Assembly (NCBI RefSeq): GCF_017301635.1 | Contig: NZ_CP071091.1 | Coordinates: forward strand, 2,182,001-2,246,000 | Direction of reading: 5' to 3' | Length of the DNA stretch: 64,000 nucleotides | DNA from: Myxococcus landrumus | GTDB taxonomy: Bacteria; Myxococcota; Myxococcia; Myxococcales; Myxococcaceae | Shown here: positions 6,655 through 13,225 of the stretch, piece by piece | How the letters are laid out: the number at the start of each line of letters is the position of its first letter | How positions within the stretch are numbered: the stretch's first letter is position 1 | The notes under the pieces: model-generated | What the model was told of the DNA's origin: nothing | Database searches by the model: none | Seen by the model: the letters and a program-made list of their open reading frames with translations, nothing else | Position numbers and translations under genes: made by a program

Positions 6655-7740
6655 TCAGCCTCCGCGCCCGGCCACCGCGCGCTTCACCGTCTCGCGCAGC
6701 CCCACGAAGGGCAGCCGCTCCAGCGCGGTGGGCACGTCCACCCACTCGAAGGTGTCGTGCTCGGGCCCCAGGCGGACCTGGGCATCCGGCGAGGCGTGGA
6801 CGGCGAAGCCGCTCTCTTCCGCGAGGACAGGGGGGAGCGTCTCCCCCACCGCGAAGGCATGCCGGTAGGCCAGGTCCTCGACGGGGAGACGCAGCCCCGT
6901 CTCCTCCTCCAGCTCGCGTACCGCGGCCTGGGCGGGGGCTTCGTCGGCCTCCACGCGGCCCGTGAGGATCTGCCAGAAGCCGCCTCGCTCGGGGCTGCGG
7001 CGCACGAGCAACACGCGCGCCTCCGAGCCATGGCCTCGCACGACGGCGATGCTCACCGTGCGCATGGGCGCGGGAGCATCCACGCGCTCACTGTCGAAGA
7101 CGGCGCAGAAGCTTCGAGCCAGCGCCTCCTGCACATCGGGCAAGGAGAGGGTGTGCCCTCGCTCCCGCTGCATCGAGGTGACACCAGCCTCGCGAATGCC
7201 GCAGGGGACGATGAAGCGGAAGTGCTCCATCTTCGTGTTCACGTTGAGCGCGAAGCCGTGGGTGGTGAGCCAGCGGGAGATGTGGACACCGATGGCGGCG
7301 ATCTTCCGCGCGTCGGGGTCGCCCTCCTCGCCCAGCCAGACACCGGGCCACTTGGGGATGGGCCCCGCGGTGATGCCCCACTCGGACAGGACCTGCATGA
7401 TGGAGCGCTCGACGTCGCGCACGTAGCGGCGGACGTCCCGGCGCGCCTCGGGGAGCAGGAAGATGGGGTAGCCGACGATTTGACCCGGACCGTGGTACGT
7501 GACGTCGCCGCCGCGATTGGTCTCGAAGACCTCCACGCCCTCGGCGGCGAGGCTCTCATCGGGCGCGGTGATGTTCTCCCGCTTCGCCCCTCGCCCGAGC
7601 GTGAGGACCGGCGGGTGCTCCAGGAGGAGCAGGACGTCTCCGCTCAGCCCCTCCCGGCGCGCGTCGCCGAAGAGGCGCATCAGGTTGAGGCCGTCCTCGT
7701 ATTCCACCCGGCCGAGCCGGTAGACGGTGATGGTGTTCAC
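6655..7740 (-). CDS. lipB: LipB octanoyltransferase fused to a C-terminal Nudix hydrolase domain
   Basis: LipB moves the octanoyl group from octanoyl-ACP to lipoyl domains. The 361-residue product has a complete LipB domain (about 1-215), with GGDVTYHGPGQ, the catalytic Lys146 in KIAAIGVH and the catalytic Cys180 in PCGIREAGVTSM. A full Nudix box follows at residues 261-283 (G-x5-E-x7-REL-x-EE-x-G-L). LipB alone is about 210-230 residues, so this is a true two-domain fusion in one frame. The GTG start overlaps the stop of the upstream ATPase gene as GTGA, so translation is probably coupled. The Nudix substrate is unknown. Confidence 0.93.
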   Translation of the reverse strand: MNTITVYRLGRVEYEDGLNLMRLFGDARREGLSGDVLLLLEHPPVLTLGRGAKRENITAPDESLAAEGVEVFETNRGGDVTYHGPGQIVGYPIFLLPEARRDVRRYVRDVERSIMQVLSEWGITAGPIPKWPGVWLGEEGDPDARKIAAIGVHISRWLTTHGFALNVNTKMEHFRFIVPCGIREAGVTSMQRERGHTLSLPDVQEALARSFCAVFDSERVDAPAPMRTVSIAVVRGHGSEARVLLVRRSPERGGFWQILTGRVEADEAPAQAAVRELEEETGLRLPVEDLAYRHAFAVGETLPPVLAEESGFAVHASPDAQVRLGPEHDTFEWVDVPTALERLPFVGLRETVKRAVAGRGG

Positions 7741-9074
7741 GACGTTCCCTTCCGCCGGCCCTTCCGAGTGGAGGGCGGCTTCGTCACTTGCTCGAGCTCC
7801 CATGTTCCCGAGGGAACCCTGTTGAGGAGGGCATGCAGCTCGTGGCCCGCGCGTGGGGAGCGCTCCGCCTCGGCGGCGAGCGCGGCCAGGGCGTCGTCGG
7901 AGAGGGATGTCGCGGGGTCGCGCAGAGCAAGGCGCGCCCGAGCCATCTCGACGTAGTCCGCGCGCGTGGGTTGGCGCAGGCACAGCAACACCCGGACGTG
8001 CTCCAGGAGCCCCACTGGGAGGATGCCACGCACCGCGCGGGACAGCACCTCCGTGGTGGGAATGGAGTGCCGCTTGGAGCCGCCTCGCAGCGAGAGCGCT
8101 CCTGAGTCCGCCGACTGACCACGCGCACTGAGGACCACGGTGGGCCGGGACTCTCGCGCGAGGAAGGCAGTGAGCGCCGTCCATGGCTCGGCGCCCAGAC
8201 GCTCGACGTCTTCGATGAACAGGGGAGTGAACGACGTGTCGTCGGCGAGCGACTCAACGTCCGAGATGACTCCCCTCCCCTGCTGCTGAAGCATCCGCAG
8301 CAGGGTGCTCTTTCCGCAGCCTTCCGCGCCCACGAGGAGGACCGTGCGGACTCCCGAGTGAAGTGAGGTCTCCAGTTGCTCACGCAGCTCGGGCTGCCCC
8401 ACGAACTCCCTCACCGTGCGGGTTCGCGACGAGGTGACAGGGCGAACAGGCAGCGGCACGGGACTCACGTCCGCGAGGAGCGACGAAGACTCCGTCAGGC
8501 ACGCCTTGCAGATGAACGCCCCCGCGGGCCCAGCCACGAGGTCACCGACCTCCGCCCGAGGCCGGCAGCAGAACGAGCACCACGCCTCGAGCGAGACATC
8601 CGCGCGCGTGGGACCTCGCTCGATGATGCGAGCCTCTCGCCTGCGACGCGGCGGCGCGTCCTCCTCGGAGGGGCTCGAGACCGTTGACTCATCACGAGAG
8701 GTCGACTCAACACCGACGGGGTCCACCGTGGCGGCCACCCGCGCGAGCTGGACCTCCAACCGCTGGAGGTCTTCGCTCACCTCCGCATCGAGGACCCACG
8801 CGGCGACCGCGGGAGACTCCTCGACGGACTGGCGCTCCACCCCGGACGCGGTCCCATCCACCAGACCTTCGAGTCGCCGCTCTTCCGCGACAAGGTCCTG
8901 TCGGCTCGAGTCCAGCCGGCGCGCATGGCGCAGCAGTTGGAGCGCCCGGGCCGTGTTTCCGGCCTGCTGGTACACGGCCGCGGCGCGCTGGAGATGCTCC
9001 ACCGCGAGGGACACATCTCCCCGCAGCTCGGCGGACTGCGCGGTGCGGATCAGCTCGCGAGGGTTCTCGGCCAT
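7737..9074 (-). CDS. P-loop ATPase with a ClpX-type C4 zinc finger
   Basis: This 445-residue protein has a TPR-like helical start (residues about 5-60), an acidic/Arg-rich linker, a four-cysteine zinc finger (C166, C169, C189, C192) whose sequence closely follows the ClpX zinc-binding domain, and an AAA-type ATPase domain. Walker A is GAEGCGKST (249-257) and a likely Walker B is PLFIEDVERLG. In ClpX the finger binds substrates and adaptors, but here no ClpX AAA+ module or pore loop follows. It is coupled to lipB by a GTGA overlap and lies downstream of E2 and lipA. A role in lipoyl-protein quality control or assembly is only a guess. Confidence 0.82.
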   Translation of the reverse strand: MAENPRELIRTAQSAELRGDVSLAVEHLQRAAAVYQQAGNTARALQLLRHARRLDSSRQDLVAEERRLEGLVDGTASGVERQSVEESPAVAAWVLDAEVSEDLQRLEVQLARVAATVDPVGVESTSRDESTVSSPSEEDAPPRRRREARIIERGPTRADVSLEAWCSFCCRPRAEVGDLVAGPAGAFICKACLTESSSLLADVSPVPLPVRPVTSSRTRTVREFVGQPELREQLETSLHSGVRTVLLVGAEGCGKSTLLRMLQQQGRGVISDVESLADDTSFTPLFIEDVERLGAEPWTALTAFLARESRPTVVLSARGQSADSGALSLRGGSKRHSIPTTEVLSRAVRGILPVGLLEHVRVLLCLRQPTRADYVEMARARLALRDPATSLSDDALAALAAEAERSPRAGHELHALLNRVPSGTWELEQVTKPPSTRKGRRKGTS

Positions 9075-9266: not shown

Positions 9267-10523
9267 TCACGCCATCGCGAGGAACAGCAGGTCCGGCTTC
9301 TCCAGGTACTTGATGACTTCGTAAACGAAGTCCGCCGCCACGGAGCCGTCGATGACGCGGTGGTCGCACGAGAGCGACAGGTTCATCATGTCGCGAATCA
9401 CAATCTGGTCGCCCACCACGGCCGGGCGCTTCTTCAGCTTGTGCACGCCCATGATGCCCACCTCGGGGTGGTTGATGATGGGCGTGGCGAACAGGCCGCC
9501 ACTCTGCCCCAGCGAGGTGATGGTGAAGGTGCCGCCCGTCAGCTCCTCCATCTTCAGCTTCCGCTCACGCGCCGCCACGCCCAGGCGCGCCGTCTCCTGC
9601 GCCAGCTCCGCCAGCGTCAGGCGATCCGCGTTCTTCACCACGGCCACCGTGAGGCCATCCGGCGTCGCCACCGCCATGCCGATGTTGTACTCGCCGCGCA
9701 CCACCAGCTCCTGCGCCGCCTCGTCGAAGTTGGCGTTCAGGTGCGGGAACTTCTTCAGCGCGGCGATGGTCGCCTTGATGATGAACGGCAGGTAGTTGAG
9801 CTTGGTGTTGTCCCCCGCCGCCGCGAGCTGCTTGTTGAGCCGCGCCCGGAGCGCCACCAGGTCCGTCGCATCCACCTCTTCCACGAAGGCGAAGTGCGGC
9901 ATGGTGAACTTCGACCGCACCATCTTCTCGGCGATCTTCTTGCGCAGGCCGCGCAGGGGAACGCGCTCGTCGGAGCGGCCCGTGGACAGCGCCGGAACCG
10001 CCGGACGCGCCTGAGCCGCGGGAGCGGCCACCACGTTCTTCGAGTCCCCACCCTCCAGCGCGGCGAGCACGTCCGCCTTCGTCACCCGCCCCTGCGGACC
10101 GCTGCCGGCAATCGTCGCCAGGTCCAGCCCATGCTCACGCGCCATGCGCCGGGTCACCGGCGTGGCCAGCACCTTCGTCGCCTGGGCCTGGGCCGCGGTG
10201 GCCGCCGGAGCCGAAGCCGCCACAGGGGCCTGCGCCGCCGGAGCGGGAGCACCGTGACCCGCCGCCTGCGCCGGAGCCGCGCCTTCAATCTCCAGCGTGA
10301 CGAGGAGCTGGTGCACCTTCGCCATGTCCCCTTCCTTGCCGTGCGTCTGCACGACGCGCCCGGCCTTCGGGCTGGGGACAGTGACGGTGGCCTTGTCCGT
10401 CATCACCTCGGCAAGCACCTGGTCTTCCTTCACGACGTCGCCGGACTTGACGTGCCACTTGACCAGCTCTCCCTCCATCACGCCTTCGCCGAGGTCGGGG
10501 AGCTTGAATTCAAAGGTTGCCAT
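9267..10523 (-). CDS. 2-oxoacid dehydrogenase E2 (dihydrolipoamide acyltransferase)
   Basis: This is the acyltransferase core of a pyruvate or branched-chain 2-oxoacid dehydrogenase complex. It has one lipoyl domain with the modified Lys44 in EVMTDKATV, an Ala/Pro linker, an E1/E3-binding domain ([23 protein letters not shown]) and the catalytic domain ending in SCDHRVIDG, with the active His near residue 388. At 418 residues with a single lipoyl domain it fits either class; gene order does not decide the substrate because no E1 gene is in the window. GGAAAG precedes the ATG. It shares strand and theme with lipA and lpdA upstream. Confidence 0.93.
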
Positions 10524-10579: not shown

Positions 10580-11509
10580 TCAGCCGAGCCGCTCGAGGCG
10601 CTCGCGCTCCATCAGGCCCTTCATAAAGAACTCGGCGGCCCGGTAGCTGGAACGAACCAGCGGCCCCGAGGCGACGTAGAGGAAGCCGTACGACTCCGCC
10701 AGCTTCTTGTACGACTCGAACTGCGCGGGAGTCACGAAGCGCTCCACTCGCAGGTGGTACTGCGAAGGCTGGAGGTACTGTCCAAGAGTGAGCACATCCA
10801 CGCCCACCTCGCGCAGGTCCTTGAACGTCTGCTCCAGCTCCGCGTCCGTCTCGCCCAGGCCCACCATCACGGACGTCTTGGTGTAGAGGCCCTCGGGGCG
10901 GCGCTTGAGGTAGTCCAGCACGCGCAGCGACTGGCGGTAGGTGGCGCGGCGATCTCGCACCGTCGGCGTCAACCGCTCCACCGTCTCCACGTTGTGGGCA
11001 ACGACGTGCGGCTTCGCCTCGGCGACCGTGGTGAGGTCCTTCTCCACCCCCTTGAAGTCGGGGATGAGCACCTCGACGATGGTGCGCGGGCTCTCCCGGC
11101 GCAGCTCGCGGATGGCGGACGCGAAGTGGCTGGCGCCACCGTCCGGCCGGTCATCTCGGTTCACCGACGTGACGACGATGTACTCGAGGTCCATCTCCTT
11201 GACCGCCTGGGCCAGGTGGATGGGCTCCATCGGGTCCAGCGGCGGAGGCGCGCCCACCTTCACGTGGCAGAAGCGGCACGCACGCGTGCAGACCTCGCCC
11301 ATCAACATCACCGTGGCCGTGCCGCCACCCCAGCACTCGGCGATGTTCGGGCAGCGAGCCTCTTCGCACACGGTCGCCAGCTTCGTGCGCTTCACGATGG
11401 CTTTGACTCGCTCGTACCCTTCGCCGTGGGGCAACCGCACCTTCAGCCATTCCGGCTTGCGGGAGGTCTCAGGCACCTGGGGGAGAGGGAACCGATCAGG
11501 AGTCGCCAT
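10580..11509 (-). CDS. lipA: Lipoyl synthase
   Basis: LipA is a radical-SAM enzyme that inserts two sulfurs into octanoyl-E2. The 309-residue product has the LipA N-terminal cysteine motif in CEEARCPNIAECW, the radical-SAM motif CTRACRFCHV, and the late RSSYRA arginine/serine motif. Along with lipB it makes the de novo lipoylation pathway for the E2 encoded 56 bases downstream. Confidence 0.96.
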   Translation of the reverse strand: MATPDRFPLPQVPETSRKPEWLKVRLPHGEGYERVKAIVKRTKLATVCEEARCPNIAECWGGGTATVMLMGEVCTRACRFCHVKVGAPPPLDPMEPIHLAQAVKEMDLEYIVVTSVNRDDRPDGGASHFASAIRELRRESPRTIVEVLIPDFKGVEKDLTTVAEAKPHVVAHNVETVERLTPTVRDRRATYRQSLRVLDYLKRRPEGLYTKTSVMVGLGETDAELEQTFKDLREVGVDVLTLGQYLQPSQYHLRVERFVTPAQFESYKKLAESYGFLYVASGPLVRSSYRAAEFFMKGLMERERLERLG

Positions 11510-11827: not shown

Positions 11828-13225
11828 CTAGAAGTGGCGCGGGTGGCCCAGCGTGGCCTCGGCGCCCTCGTGGACGATCTCCGAGAGCGTCGGGTGGGCG
11901 TGGATGGTGCCCGCCAGCTCCTCGGTGGTGATCTCCAGCTTCAGCGCGACGCACGCCTCGGCGAGCAGCTCCGTGGCGTGGGGGCCGATGATGTGGATGC
12001 CCAGCACCTCGTCGTACTTCTTGTCCGAGACGATCTTGATGAGGCCGCCCGACTCGTTGGTGATGGCCGCCTTCGTCACGGCGCCGAACGGGGCGTTGCC
12101 GATCTTGACGTCGTAGCCGCGCTCCTTGGCCTTCTTCTCCGTGAGGCCCACGGAGGCGACCTCGGGGTAGCAGTAGGTCGCGGACGGCGTCAGGTCGTAG
12201 TTGATGGGCTGCGGGTTCTTCCCGGCGATGTGCTCCACCGCCACCACGCACTCCGCGCTCGCCATGTGGGCCAGCATCGGGGTGGGGATGACGTCGCCCA
12301 CGGCATAGACGTTGGGCTCGCTGGTGCGCAGCATCGAGTCGACCTTGATGAAGCCGCGGTCGGTCTTGATGGACGTCTTGTCCAGGCCCACGTCCTCCGT
12401 CACGGGCGCGCGGCCCACGGCGGACAGGAGGATCTCCGCCTCGAGCGTCTTCGTCTCGCTGCCCACCTTCATGGTGACGCGCACGCCGTCGGCCGTGTGC
12501 TCCACCTTCTCCACAGCCGAGCCCGTGTGCACGTCGATGCCACGGCGGCGGAAGGTCTTCTCCAGCTCCTTGGAGATGTCCGCGTCCTCGATGGGGAGCA
12601 GCGCGGGCAGGTACTCCACGATGGAGGTCTTGCTGCCCACGTGGTTGAAGACGGACGCGAACTCACAGCCCACCGCGCCGGCGCCCAGGACGATGATGCT
12701 CTTGGGGATGCGGTCGATCTGCAGGATGGAGTCGCTGTTCATCACGCGCTTGTGGTCCACCGGAACGTTCGGCAGGGACTTGGGCACCGAGCCCGTCGCG
12801 ATGATGATGTTCTTCGCCTCGAGGACCTGCTTGGTGCCGTCGGCGGCGGTGACCTCCACCTTGCCCTTGCCAGCGATGCGGCCATGGCCCTTGATGACCG
12901 TCACCTTGTTCTTCTTCATCAAGAAGTCGATGCCGTTGGCACCCTTGGTGACGACCTTGTCCTTGTGCTTCATCGCGTTGGGCCAGTTGACCGTCGGGCT
13001 CGACACGTCGACGCCGAAGTCGCTCGCCTCGCGAACGTGGTGGAACAGCTCCGCCGTCCACAGCAGGGACTTGGTGGGGATGCACCCGCGATGGAGGCAG
13101 GTACCGCCCAGACGCTTGTCCTTCTCGATGATGGCCGTCTTCAGCCCGAGCTGCCCCGCCCGGATGGCACCCACGTAGCCGCCAGGGCCCGAACCGATGA
13201 TCACCACGTCGAACGTCTCAGCCAC
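11828..13225 (-). CDS. lpdA: Dihydrolipoyl dehydrogenase (E3)
   Basis: This FAD enzyme reoxidises dihydrolipoamide on E2 and reduces NAD. The 465-residue product has the FAD-binding GSGPGGYVGAIRAGQLG, the redox-active pair Cys43/Cys48 in GGTCLHRGCIPTKSLL, the NAD-binding GAGAVGCEFASVF, the second FAD motif VYAVGDV, and the catalytic His-Glu region HAHPTLSEIVHE near the C-terminus. It heads the lipoate-related block on this strand. Confidence 0.97.
   Translation of the reverse strand: MAETFDVVIIGSGPGGYVGAIRAGQLGLKTAIIEKDKRLGGTCLHRGCIPTKSLLWTAELFHHVREASDFGVDVSSPTVNWPNAMKHKDKVVTKGANGIDFLMKKNKVTVIKGHGRIAGKGKVEVTAADGTKQVLEAKNIIIATGSVPKSLPNVPVDHKRVMNSDSILQIDRIPKSIIVLGAGAVGCEFASVFNHVGSKTSIVEYLPALLPIEDADISKELEKTFRRRGIDVHTGSAVEKVEHTADGVRVTMKVGSETKTLEAEILLSAVGRAPVTEDVGLDKTSIKTDRGFIKVDSMLRTSEPNVYAVGDVIPTPMLAHMASAECVVAVEHIAGKNPQPINYDLTPSATYCYPEVASVGLTEKKAKERGYDVKIGNAPFGAVTKAAITNESGGLIKIVSDKKYDEVLGIHIIGPHATELLAEACVALKLEITTEELAGTIHAHPTLSEIVHEGAEATLGHPRHF

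What the first reader, a model, noticed from the sequence alone, without database searches (positions are those of the whole stretch)
7737..9074. A ClpX-type zinc finger on a non-ClpX ATPase inside a lipoylation block
Residues 165-192 copy the ClpX zinc-binding domain (CxxC...GPxxxxICxxC), a module I know mainly from ClpX itself. Here it sits between a TPR-like start and a different P-loop ATPase, and the gene is coupled to lipB by a 4-base overlap, next to E2 and lipA. The finger could recruit lipoyl-complex subunits or Clp adaptors, making this a candidate assembly or quality-control factor.
Basis: partly seen in the sequence, partly recalled or inferred. Interest (0 to 1): 0.65.

Follow-up and report, generated by a model that had tools for sequence, protein, structure and literature searches.

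The report
lipB-linked protein with ClpX-type zinc finger
A gene found next to a lipoic-acid attachment gene across one group of myxobacteria carries the protein-docking finger of the ClpX protease on a different, partly worn-down ATPase, which suggests an unstudied helper that may link lipoylation to protein quality control.

Summary
Window 7737-9074 (minus strand) encodes 445 aa: a TPR-like start, a genuine ClpX-type C4 finger (Pfam zf-C4_ClpX, E 3.1e-11) and an AAA+ module; its stop overlaps the lipB start by four bases. It is not confined to one strain. I count 97 carriers among 145 genomes of the order (94 of 96 of the own family). In 95 of 97 the gene lies directly upstream of lipB; in the other two lipB is on another contig or was not found in full. 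The link to E2 and lipA is weaker: E2 is upstream in 20 of 29 genomes with enough flank. The finger motif is in 57 of 57 proteins and is the region under strongest purifying selection. The AAA+ module is missing in 4 of 57, the Walker-B acids are lacking in 14 of the remaining 53, and by profile it resembles RuvB more than ClpX. So the fixed core is TPR plus finger. An SspB-family gene was found in 91 of the 97 carriers. I favour a docking or scaffold protein for LipB that uses a ClpX-type adaptor finger. That function is inferred; no partner has been shown. New variant of a known kind.

The parts
7737..9074 (-). the gene: TPR-like hairpins + ClpX-type finger + AAA+ module, 445 aa
   Evidence: ORF and translation; one match at E <= 0.001 in the own genome, 100% identical
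8844..9074 (-). N-terminal TPR-like helical hairpins, residues about 1-77
   Evidence: helices 5-18, 21-37, 41-54, 59-77; mean pLDDT 96-98 in the six ten-residue blocks 11-70; TPR_2 in 8 and TPR_12 in 7 of 26 members
8472..8582 (-). ClpX-type C4 zinc finger, residues 165-201 (Cys166, Cys169, Cys189, Cys192; docking-loop AGP 181-183)
   Evidence: Pfam zf-C4_ClpX E 3.1e-11; motif in 57 of 57 proteins; dN/dS 0.00-0.21, lowest of the four regions in each of 7 comparisons
7785..8411 (-). AAA+ module, residues 222-430: Walker A GAEGCGKS (249-256), Walker-B-like IED, sensor-2-like SPR
   Evidence: AlphaFold model of the domain alone, mean pLDDT 87.6; RuvB profile over 180 columns; Walker A in 53 of 57; motif names beyond Walker A are my reading
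6655..7740 (-). lipB fused in frame to a Nudix domain; start overlaps the stop of the finger gene by 4 bases
   Evidence: LplA-B_cat E 7.4e-44 and NUDIX E 2.8e-16 in one ORF; overlap
9267..10523 (-). E2, 2-oxoacid dehydrogenase acyltransferase with lipoyl domain
   Evidence: Pfam 2-oxoacid_dh E 1.3e-87, Biotin_lipoyl E 2.5e-20
10580..11509 (-). lipA, lipoyl synthase
   Evidence: Pfam LIAS_N and Radical_SAM
11828..13225 (-). E3, dihydrolipoyl dehydrogenase-like
   Evidence: Pfam Pyr_redox_2 and Pyr_redox_dim; the name E3 is my reading

Best explanation
This is a myxobacterial accessory protein of LipB, the octanoyl transferase that starts lipoylation. Shown here: a gene kept directly upstream of lipB in one bacterial order; a constant core of TPR-like start plus ClpX-type finger; and an optional RuvB-like AAA+ module that keeps its nucleotide loop but not always its Walker-B acids. 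Inferred: the finger is a protein-docking module that has kept the adaptor-docking loop (AGP) of bacterial ClpX. It would bind a partner tail of the SspB kind, or pair with a ClpX finger, while the TPR part holds LipB or a lipoyl-complex subunit. The AAA+ part, where present, would act as an ATP-dependent clasp rather than an unfoldase. The protein would thus act as a scaffold that brings the lipoylation enzyme, or poorly lipoylated protein, within reach of the SspB-ClpXP system, or shields it from that system.
For: Finger present in 57 of 57 and the most constrained region in 7 of 7 comparisons. AAA+ absent in 4 of the 57; on the LipB tree the six AAA-less rows need 4 changes, at least 3 on starred branches, so TPR plus finger is the part always kept. 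Linkage to lipB in 95 of 97, with a gap of at most 32 bases in 81 of 95, and it survives loss of the E2 neighbour. The ClpX ZBD is an adaptor-docking and dimerising domain (PMC9035409 and PMC7647994, passages). An SspB-family match at E <= 0.001 occurs in 91 of the 97 carriers. All 18 SspB proteins read end in a basic HL[RK]-type tail, RGHLR[LVI][VI]K in 16 of them (three of the 18 are from non-carriers).
Against: No interaction is shown. The finger has one extra residue next to the docking loop compared with ClpX, so tail binding may be lost. SspB also occurs in 20 genomes that I count as lacking the family, so it does not depend on it, and the co-occurrence follows phylogeny. SspB matches are weak: in the own genome 28 bits against a cut-off of 27. 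SspB was not found in 4 carriers, and 2 more are not shown in the listing. The tail pattern finds only SspB in the own genome, so no lipoylation protein there was found to carry it; the pattern uses GC-rich codons. Gene adjacency can be inertia.
Confidence: 0.35

Rival explanations
1. Dedicated LipB assembly or regulatory factor without any Clp involvement: the finger is only a folded zinc hairpin that self-pairs or binds LipB-Nudix directly, and ATP binding by the AAA+ part regulates octanoyl transfer.
For: lipB is the one constant neighbour and the two genes overlap; the finger differs from ClpX by one inserted residue and by an invariant Trp165 and Cys170; isolated ClpX fingers dimerise (PMC9035409, passage).
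Against: The docking loop AGP of ClpX is retained: A, G and P in 49, 50 and 52 of 54 aligned rows, with 1-2 rows gapped. Mere folding may not require this.
Confidence: 0.3
2. Operon passenger: the protein has another task (for example signalling or stress response) and sits with lipB only for co-expression or by inertia.
For: In 9 of 29 genomes the block is detached from E2; in seven of these nine the unit starts beside a divergent MFS transporter gene. The MBL, RibA and MoeA genes downstream are conserved in many loci too, with no evident functional link.
Against: Adjacency to lipB persists in 95 of 97 carriers while E1 and E2 come and go.
Confidence: 0.22
3. A decayed ClpX paralogue: finger and AAA+ both descend from ClpX, and pore and ClpP-docking loops were lost.
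For: Same domain order as ClpX; ClpX chains top the structural comparison (6vfx_C Z 14.7, 3.0 A over 194; 3hte_E Z 14.7, 7.7 A over 206; domain alone 6vfs_D Z 14.3, 2.9 A over 193).
Against: RFC 2chg_B (Z 13.8, 3.1 A over 176) and Orc1 2v1u_A (Z 13.7, 2.8 A over 182) are within 1 Z of the top, hence tied; RuvB 8efy_D is Z 13.6, 8.3 A over 186. By profile ClpX aligns over 64 columns only, RuvB over 180. Pfam gives AAA_16 in 22 of 26 members, and no Clp AAA model is among the 25 families shown of 49.
Confidence: 0.08

Closest known systems
ClpX (bacterial AAA+ unfoldase of ClpXP)
   Same: N-terminal C4 finger with the docking loop AGP; finger placed before an AAA+ module
   Different: No GYVG pore loop and no IGF-type loop in the translation, and IED instead of DE at Walker B (motif names recalled); added TPR-like start; AAA+ closer to RuvB by profile; two ordinary ClpX genes coexist in the genome
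RuvB / clamp-loader type AAA+ ATPases
   Same: AAA+ core and lid align over 180 columns, probability 96.0
   Different: Arginine-finger position not conserved (H, Q, K, R or G in A1, my reading); Walker-B acids lacking in 14 of 53 by pattern; RuvB_N score below its cut-off
Cyanobacterial sigma factors with an accessory zf-C4_ClpX domain
   Same: A ClpX-type finger attached to a protein that is not ClpX (PMC11119718, one passage)
   Different: Different partner domains and lineage; no lipB link is mentioned in the passage read
PDIP38 / SspB adaptors of ClpX
   Same: Same interaction system: adaptors dock on the loop of this finger (PMC7647994, passages)
   Different: Those proteins are the ligands of the finger; the protein here carries the finger itself

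Membership tests
ClpX | C4 zinc-binding domain of ClpX type | tested here: met
   zf-C4_ClpX 43.4 bits against cut-off 27; 97.2 probability to ClpX ZBDs
ClpX | whole-protein match to the ClpX equivalog models | tested here: not met
   NF003745 23.6 bits against cut-off 359, residues 164-202 only; TIGR00382 13.4 bits against 370.75
ClpX | pore-1 GYVG and IGF-type ClpP-docking loops | tested here: not met
   neither string occurs in the 445 aa; the two ClpX proteins of the genome have GYVG and LGF (my reading)
ClpX | AAA+ fold of the ClpX kind | tested here: inconclusive
   ClpX Z 14.7 (3.0 A over 194), but RFC Z 13.8 (3.1 A over 176) is tied; domain alone ClpX 14.3 against Orc1 13.7
AAA+ ATPases | Walker A | tested here: met
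   GAEGCGKS; 53 of 57 members, the other four lack the module
AAA+ ATPases | Walker B acidic pair | tested here: inconclusive
   IED in this protein; ED or DD by pattern in 39 of 53 members with the module, not in 14 (L062 is borderline)
RuvB | Pfam RuvB_N gathering score | tested here: not met
   14 bits against cut-off 27
TPR proteins | helical hairpin repeat | tested here: inconclusive
   hairpins in the model; TPR_2 E 0.016 in this protein, below cut-off
ClpX adaptor receptor (works like a ClpX ZBD) | binds SspB-type tails or pairs with ClpX fingers | not testable with these tools
   needs binding assays

The most novel reading that the evidence does not exclude
Myxobacteria run a second, non-protease receptor for the SspB/ClpX adaptor system: the TPR-finger protein made from the lipB operon captures SspB or the ClpX finger at the lipoylation machinery, so that unlipoylated or damaged 2-oxoacid dehydrogenase parts are handed to, or protected from, ClpXP in step with lipoate supply.
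Probability: 0.15. Interest if true: 0.78.

Novelty: new variant of a known kind. Interest (0 to 1): 0.52.

Why it matters
A review calls the ClpX finger 'family-specific' (PMC9035409, passage). A family that detaches this docking module, keeps it almost unchanged while the ATPase behind it erodes, and ties it to lipB would suggest that the adaptor code of ClpXP is used outside the protease. It would also offer a candidate for a bacterial lipoylation accessory factor linked to proteolysis. Nine paper searches (terms around zf-C4_ClpX, ClpX zinc finger and lipoyl, lipB and Nudix, ClpXP and lipoylation, and Myxococcus xanthus lipA) listed nothing that I recognised as describing this family. I judged this from titles and abstract starts, and that library lacks most subscription journals.

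Tried and rejected
ClpX descent of the ATPase: considered because ClpX chains top the structural list; kept as a low-probability rival because of profile reach and ties in Z.

SspB-like tails on the neighbours as finger ligands: a pattern search of the own genome found only SspB itself (1 match). The pattern uses GC-rich codons and would miss others. Its control, the pattern read backwards, gave 5 forward and 0 reverse matches, so a single match is not rarer than chance in itself; it counts only because it falls on the SspB end.

Strict co-occurrence with SspB: rejected. 91 of 97 carriers have a match at E <= 0.001, but so do 20 genomes counted as without the family, among them G127, whose status is open.

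E2 as the key partner: weakened. Of 29 distinct genomes for which I had at least about 1.3 kb upstream, 20 (window included) have E2 there and 9 do not (tallied by hand). Loci with shorter flanks, including most same-genus loci, are not in this count.

Literature: 9 of 10 searches used. I saw passages only of PMC9035409, PMC7647994 and PMC11119718, and search listings for the rest.

The tallies of 104 of 145 genomes and 192 of 195 include matches to ClpX itself through the finger. I therefore chose carriers by hand from the listed matches and counted 97. G054 and G127 of the own family have no accepted match; no lipB was found in either.

Full report
What is there. The ORF at window 9074-7737 (minus) encodes 445 aa, with one match to itself in its 10.37-Mb genome. 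Residues 165-201 match zf-C4_ClpX at 43.4 bits against a cut-off of 27. AlphaFold gives helical hairpins at 5-77, a low-confidence linker, the finger (block means 73-77 pLDDT) and an AAA+ module at about 222-430; the module alone reaches mean pLDDT 87.6. The stop codon overlaps the GTG start of lipB by four bases. lipB itself is one frame with a Nudix domain. Upstream lie E2, lipA and an E3-like gene.

Who has it. I searched 145 genomes of the order with this protein and 195 of the phylum with a 26-row alignment. From the listed matches I accept 97 carriers: 94 of 96 genomes of the own family, 1 of 1 of family f7 and 2 of 5 of f8. The acceptance is mine, by extent and place of the match. I accepted none in families f2-f6 and f9, nor outside the order, where the best matches listed cover finger and P-loop only, as ClpX does; those lists are capped. 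lipB-Nudix matches occur in 143 of 145 genomes. In 95 of 97 carriers the gene is directly upstream of lipB on the same strand; in G139 the two lie on different contigs, and for G138 only a Nudix-part match was listed. In 81 of these 95 the matched parts are at most 32 bases apart.

Neighbourhood history. In several loci the order is lipA - E1beta - E2 - E1alpha - this gene - lipB-Nudix (L054, L061, L062, L063, L095; E1 identities by Pfam in L095). In relatives without the gene, E1alpha precedes lipB with nothing between that I identified (L085-L090, L099, L100); in L083 and L084 an LpdA-like gene does. In the window and its near relatives the E1 genes are not at this site. Of 29 genomes with enough upstream sequence, 20 have E2 there and 9 do not. 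In seven of these nine (L033, L047, L048, L053, L056, L057, L058) a divergently read MFS transporter gene lies upstream instead. So the durable partner is lipB.

What is conserved. Among 57 distinct proteins, the WCSFCC finger is in 57 of 57 and Walker A in 53 of 57. L040, L055, L096 and L098 lack the module. L092 and L093, not among the 57, are 130- and 121-aa frames with a TPR-like start and a more degenerate CxxC...CxxC. Two acids at the Walker-B position are found by pattern in 39 of 53 and not in 14. On a LipB-Nudix tree of 72 rows the AAA-less state (6 rows) needs 4 changes, at least 3 forced by starred branches, against a shuffled mean of 5.9, with 3 of 500 shuffles as low; this is a quick search with SH-aLRT only. 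In seven pairwise comparisons by my own Nei-Gojobori script, dN/dS is 0.00-0.21 for the finger, 0.22-0.46 for the AAA+ region, 0.24-0.34 for the TPR region and 0.24-0.59 for the linker. The finger is therefore the most constrained part.

What the ATPase is. Profile comparison aligns it to RuvB over 180 columns (probability 96.0) and to ClpX over 64 columns near its C-terminal end (87.9); the finger aligns to ClpX ZBDs at 97.2. Pfam on 26 members: zf-C4_ClpX 26, AAA_16 22, AAA_22 18. Structural comparison puts ClpX first at Z 14.7, with RFC and RuvB within about 1 Z, so it does not decide. Foldseek by itself ranks RuvB first. ClpX as a whole-protein call is excluded.

The Clp side. The own genome has two ClpX genes and one SspB-family match. 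The 18 SspB proteins read end in RGHLR[LVI][VI]K in 16 cases, KNHLKLVK in L160 and RRHLRLVR in L162 (L160-L162 come from non-carriers). E. coli SspB docks on the ClpX finger by such a tail (recalled), and a docking loop has been mapped for human CLPX (PMC7647994, passages); that this loop corresponds to AGP in bacteria is my own alignment. The AGP is kept in the finger here, with one residue inserted after it. This makes tail binding plausible but unproven. SspB matches: 91 of 97 carriers, 4 without, 2 not shown; 20 genomes counted as non-carriers also have one, so the association is weak and follows phylogeny.

Verdict. The finding is real and conserved, and I found no description of it in the library searched. 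I rate a docking or scaffold role at 0.35, a purely LipB-directed factor at 0.30, a passenger at 0.22 and a decayed ClpX at 0.08.

Noticed in passing
window 6655-7740 (-): LipB and a Nudix hydrolase are one polypeptide; the 361-aa query matched in 143 of 145 genomes of the order, in most listed rows along nearly its full length, in a few the LipB part alone. A paper search for lipB, Nudix and octanoyltransferase listed one paper, on bacterial protein abundance (listing only).
   Followed up: partly
own genome G000:C1:8077016-8077111 (L044): A 68-aa open frame with a ClpX-type finger (40.3 bits), separate from ClpX and from this family.
   Followed up: no
G000:C1:2022933 and 4039287 (L041, L042): Two full ClpX paralogues in the own genome; most genomes of the order show two or more finger matches.
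   Followed up: no
L151-L168: Myxobacterial SspB genes with a conserved docking-type tail; smpB-like frames (my reading) lie beside several of them.
   Followed up: partly
L054, L061-L063, L095 versus window: E1alpha and E1beta sit in the lipA-E2-lipB operon in some relatives but not at this site in the window; where they are in the own genome was not sought.
   Followed up: no
L006, L010 against L001: The linker between TPR and finger varies greatly, giving proteins of 445 to 779 aa within one genus, with starts chosen by me.
   Followed up: no
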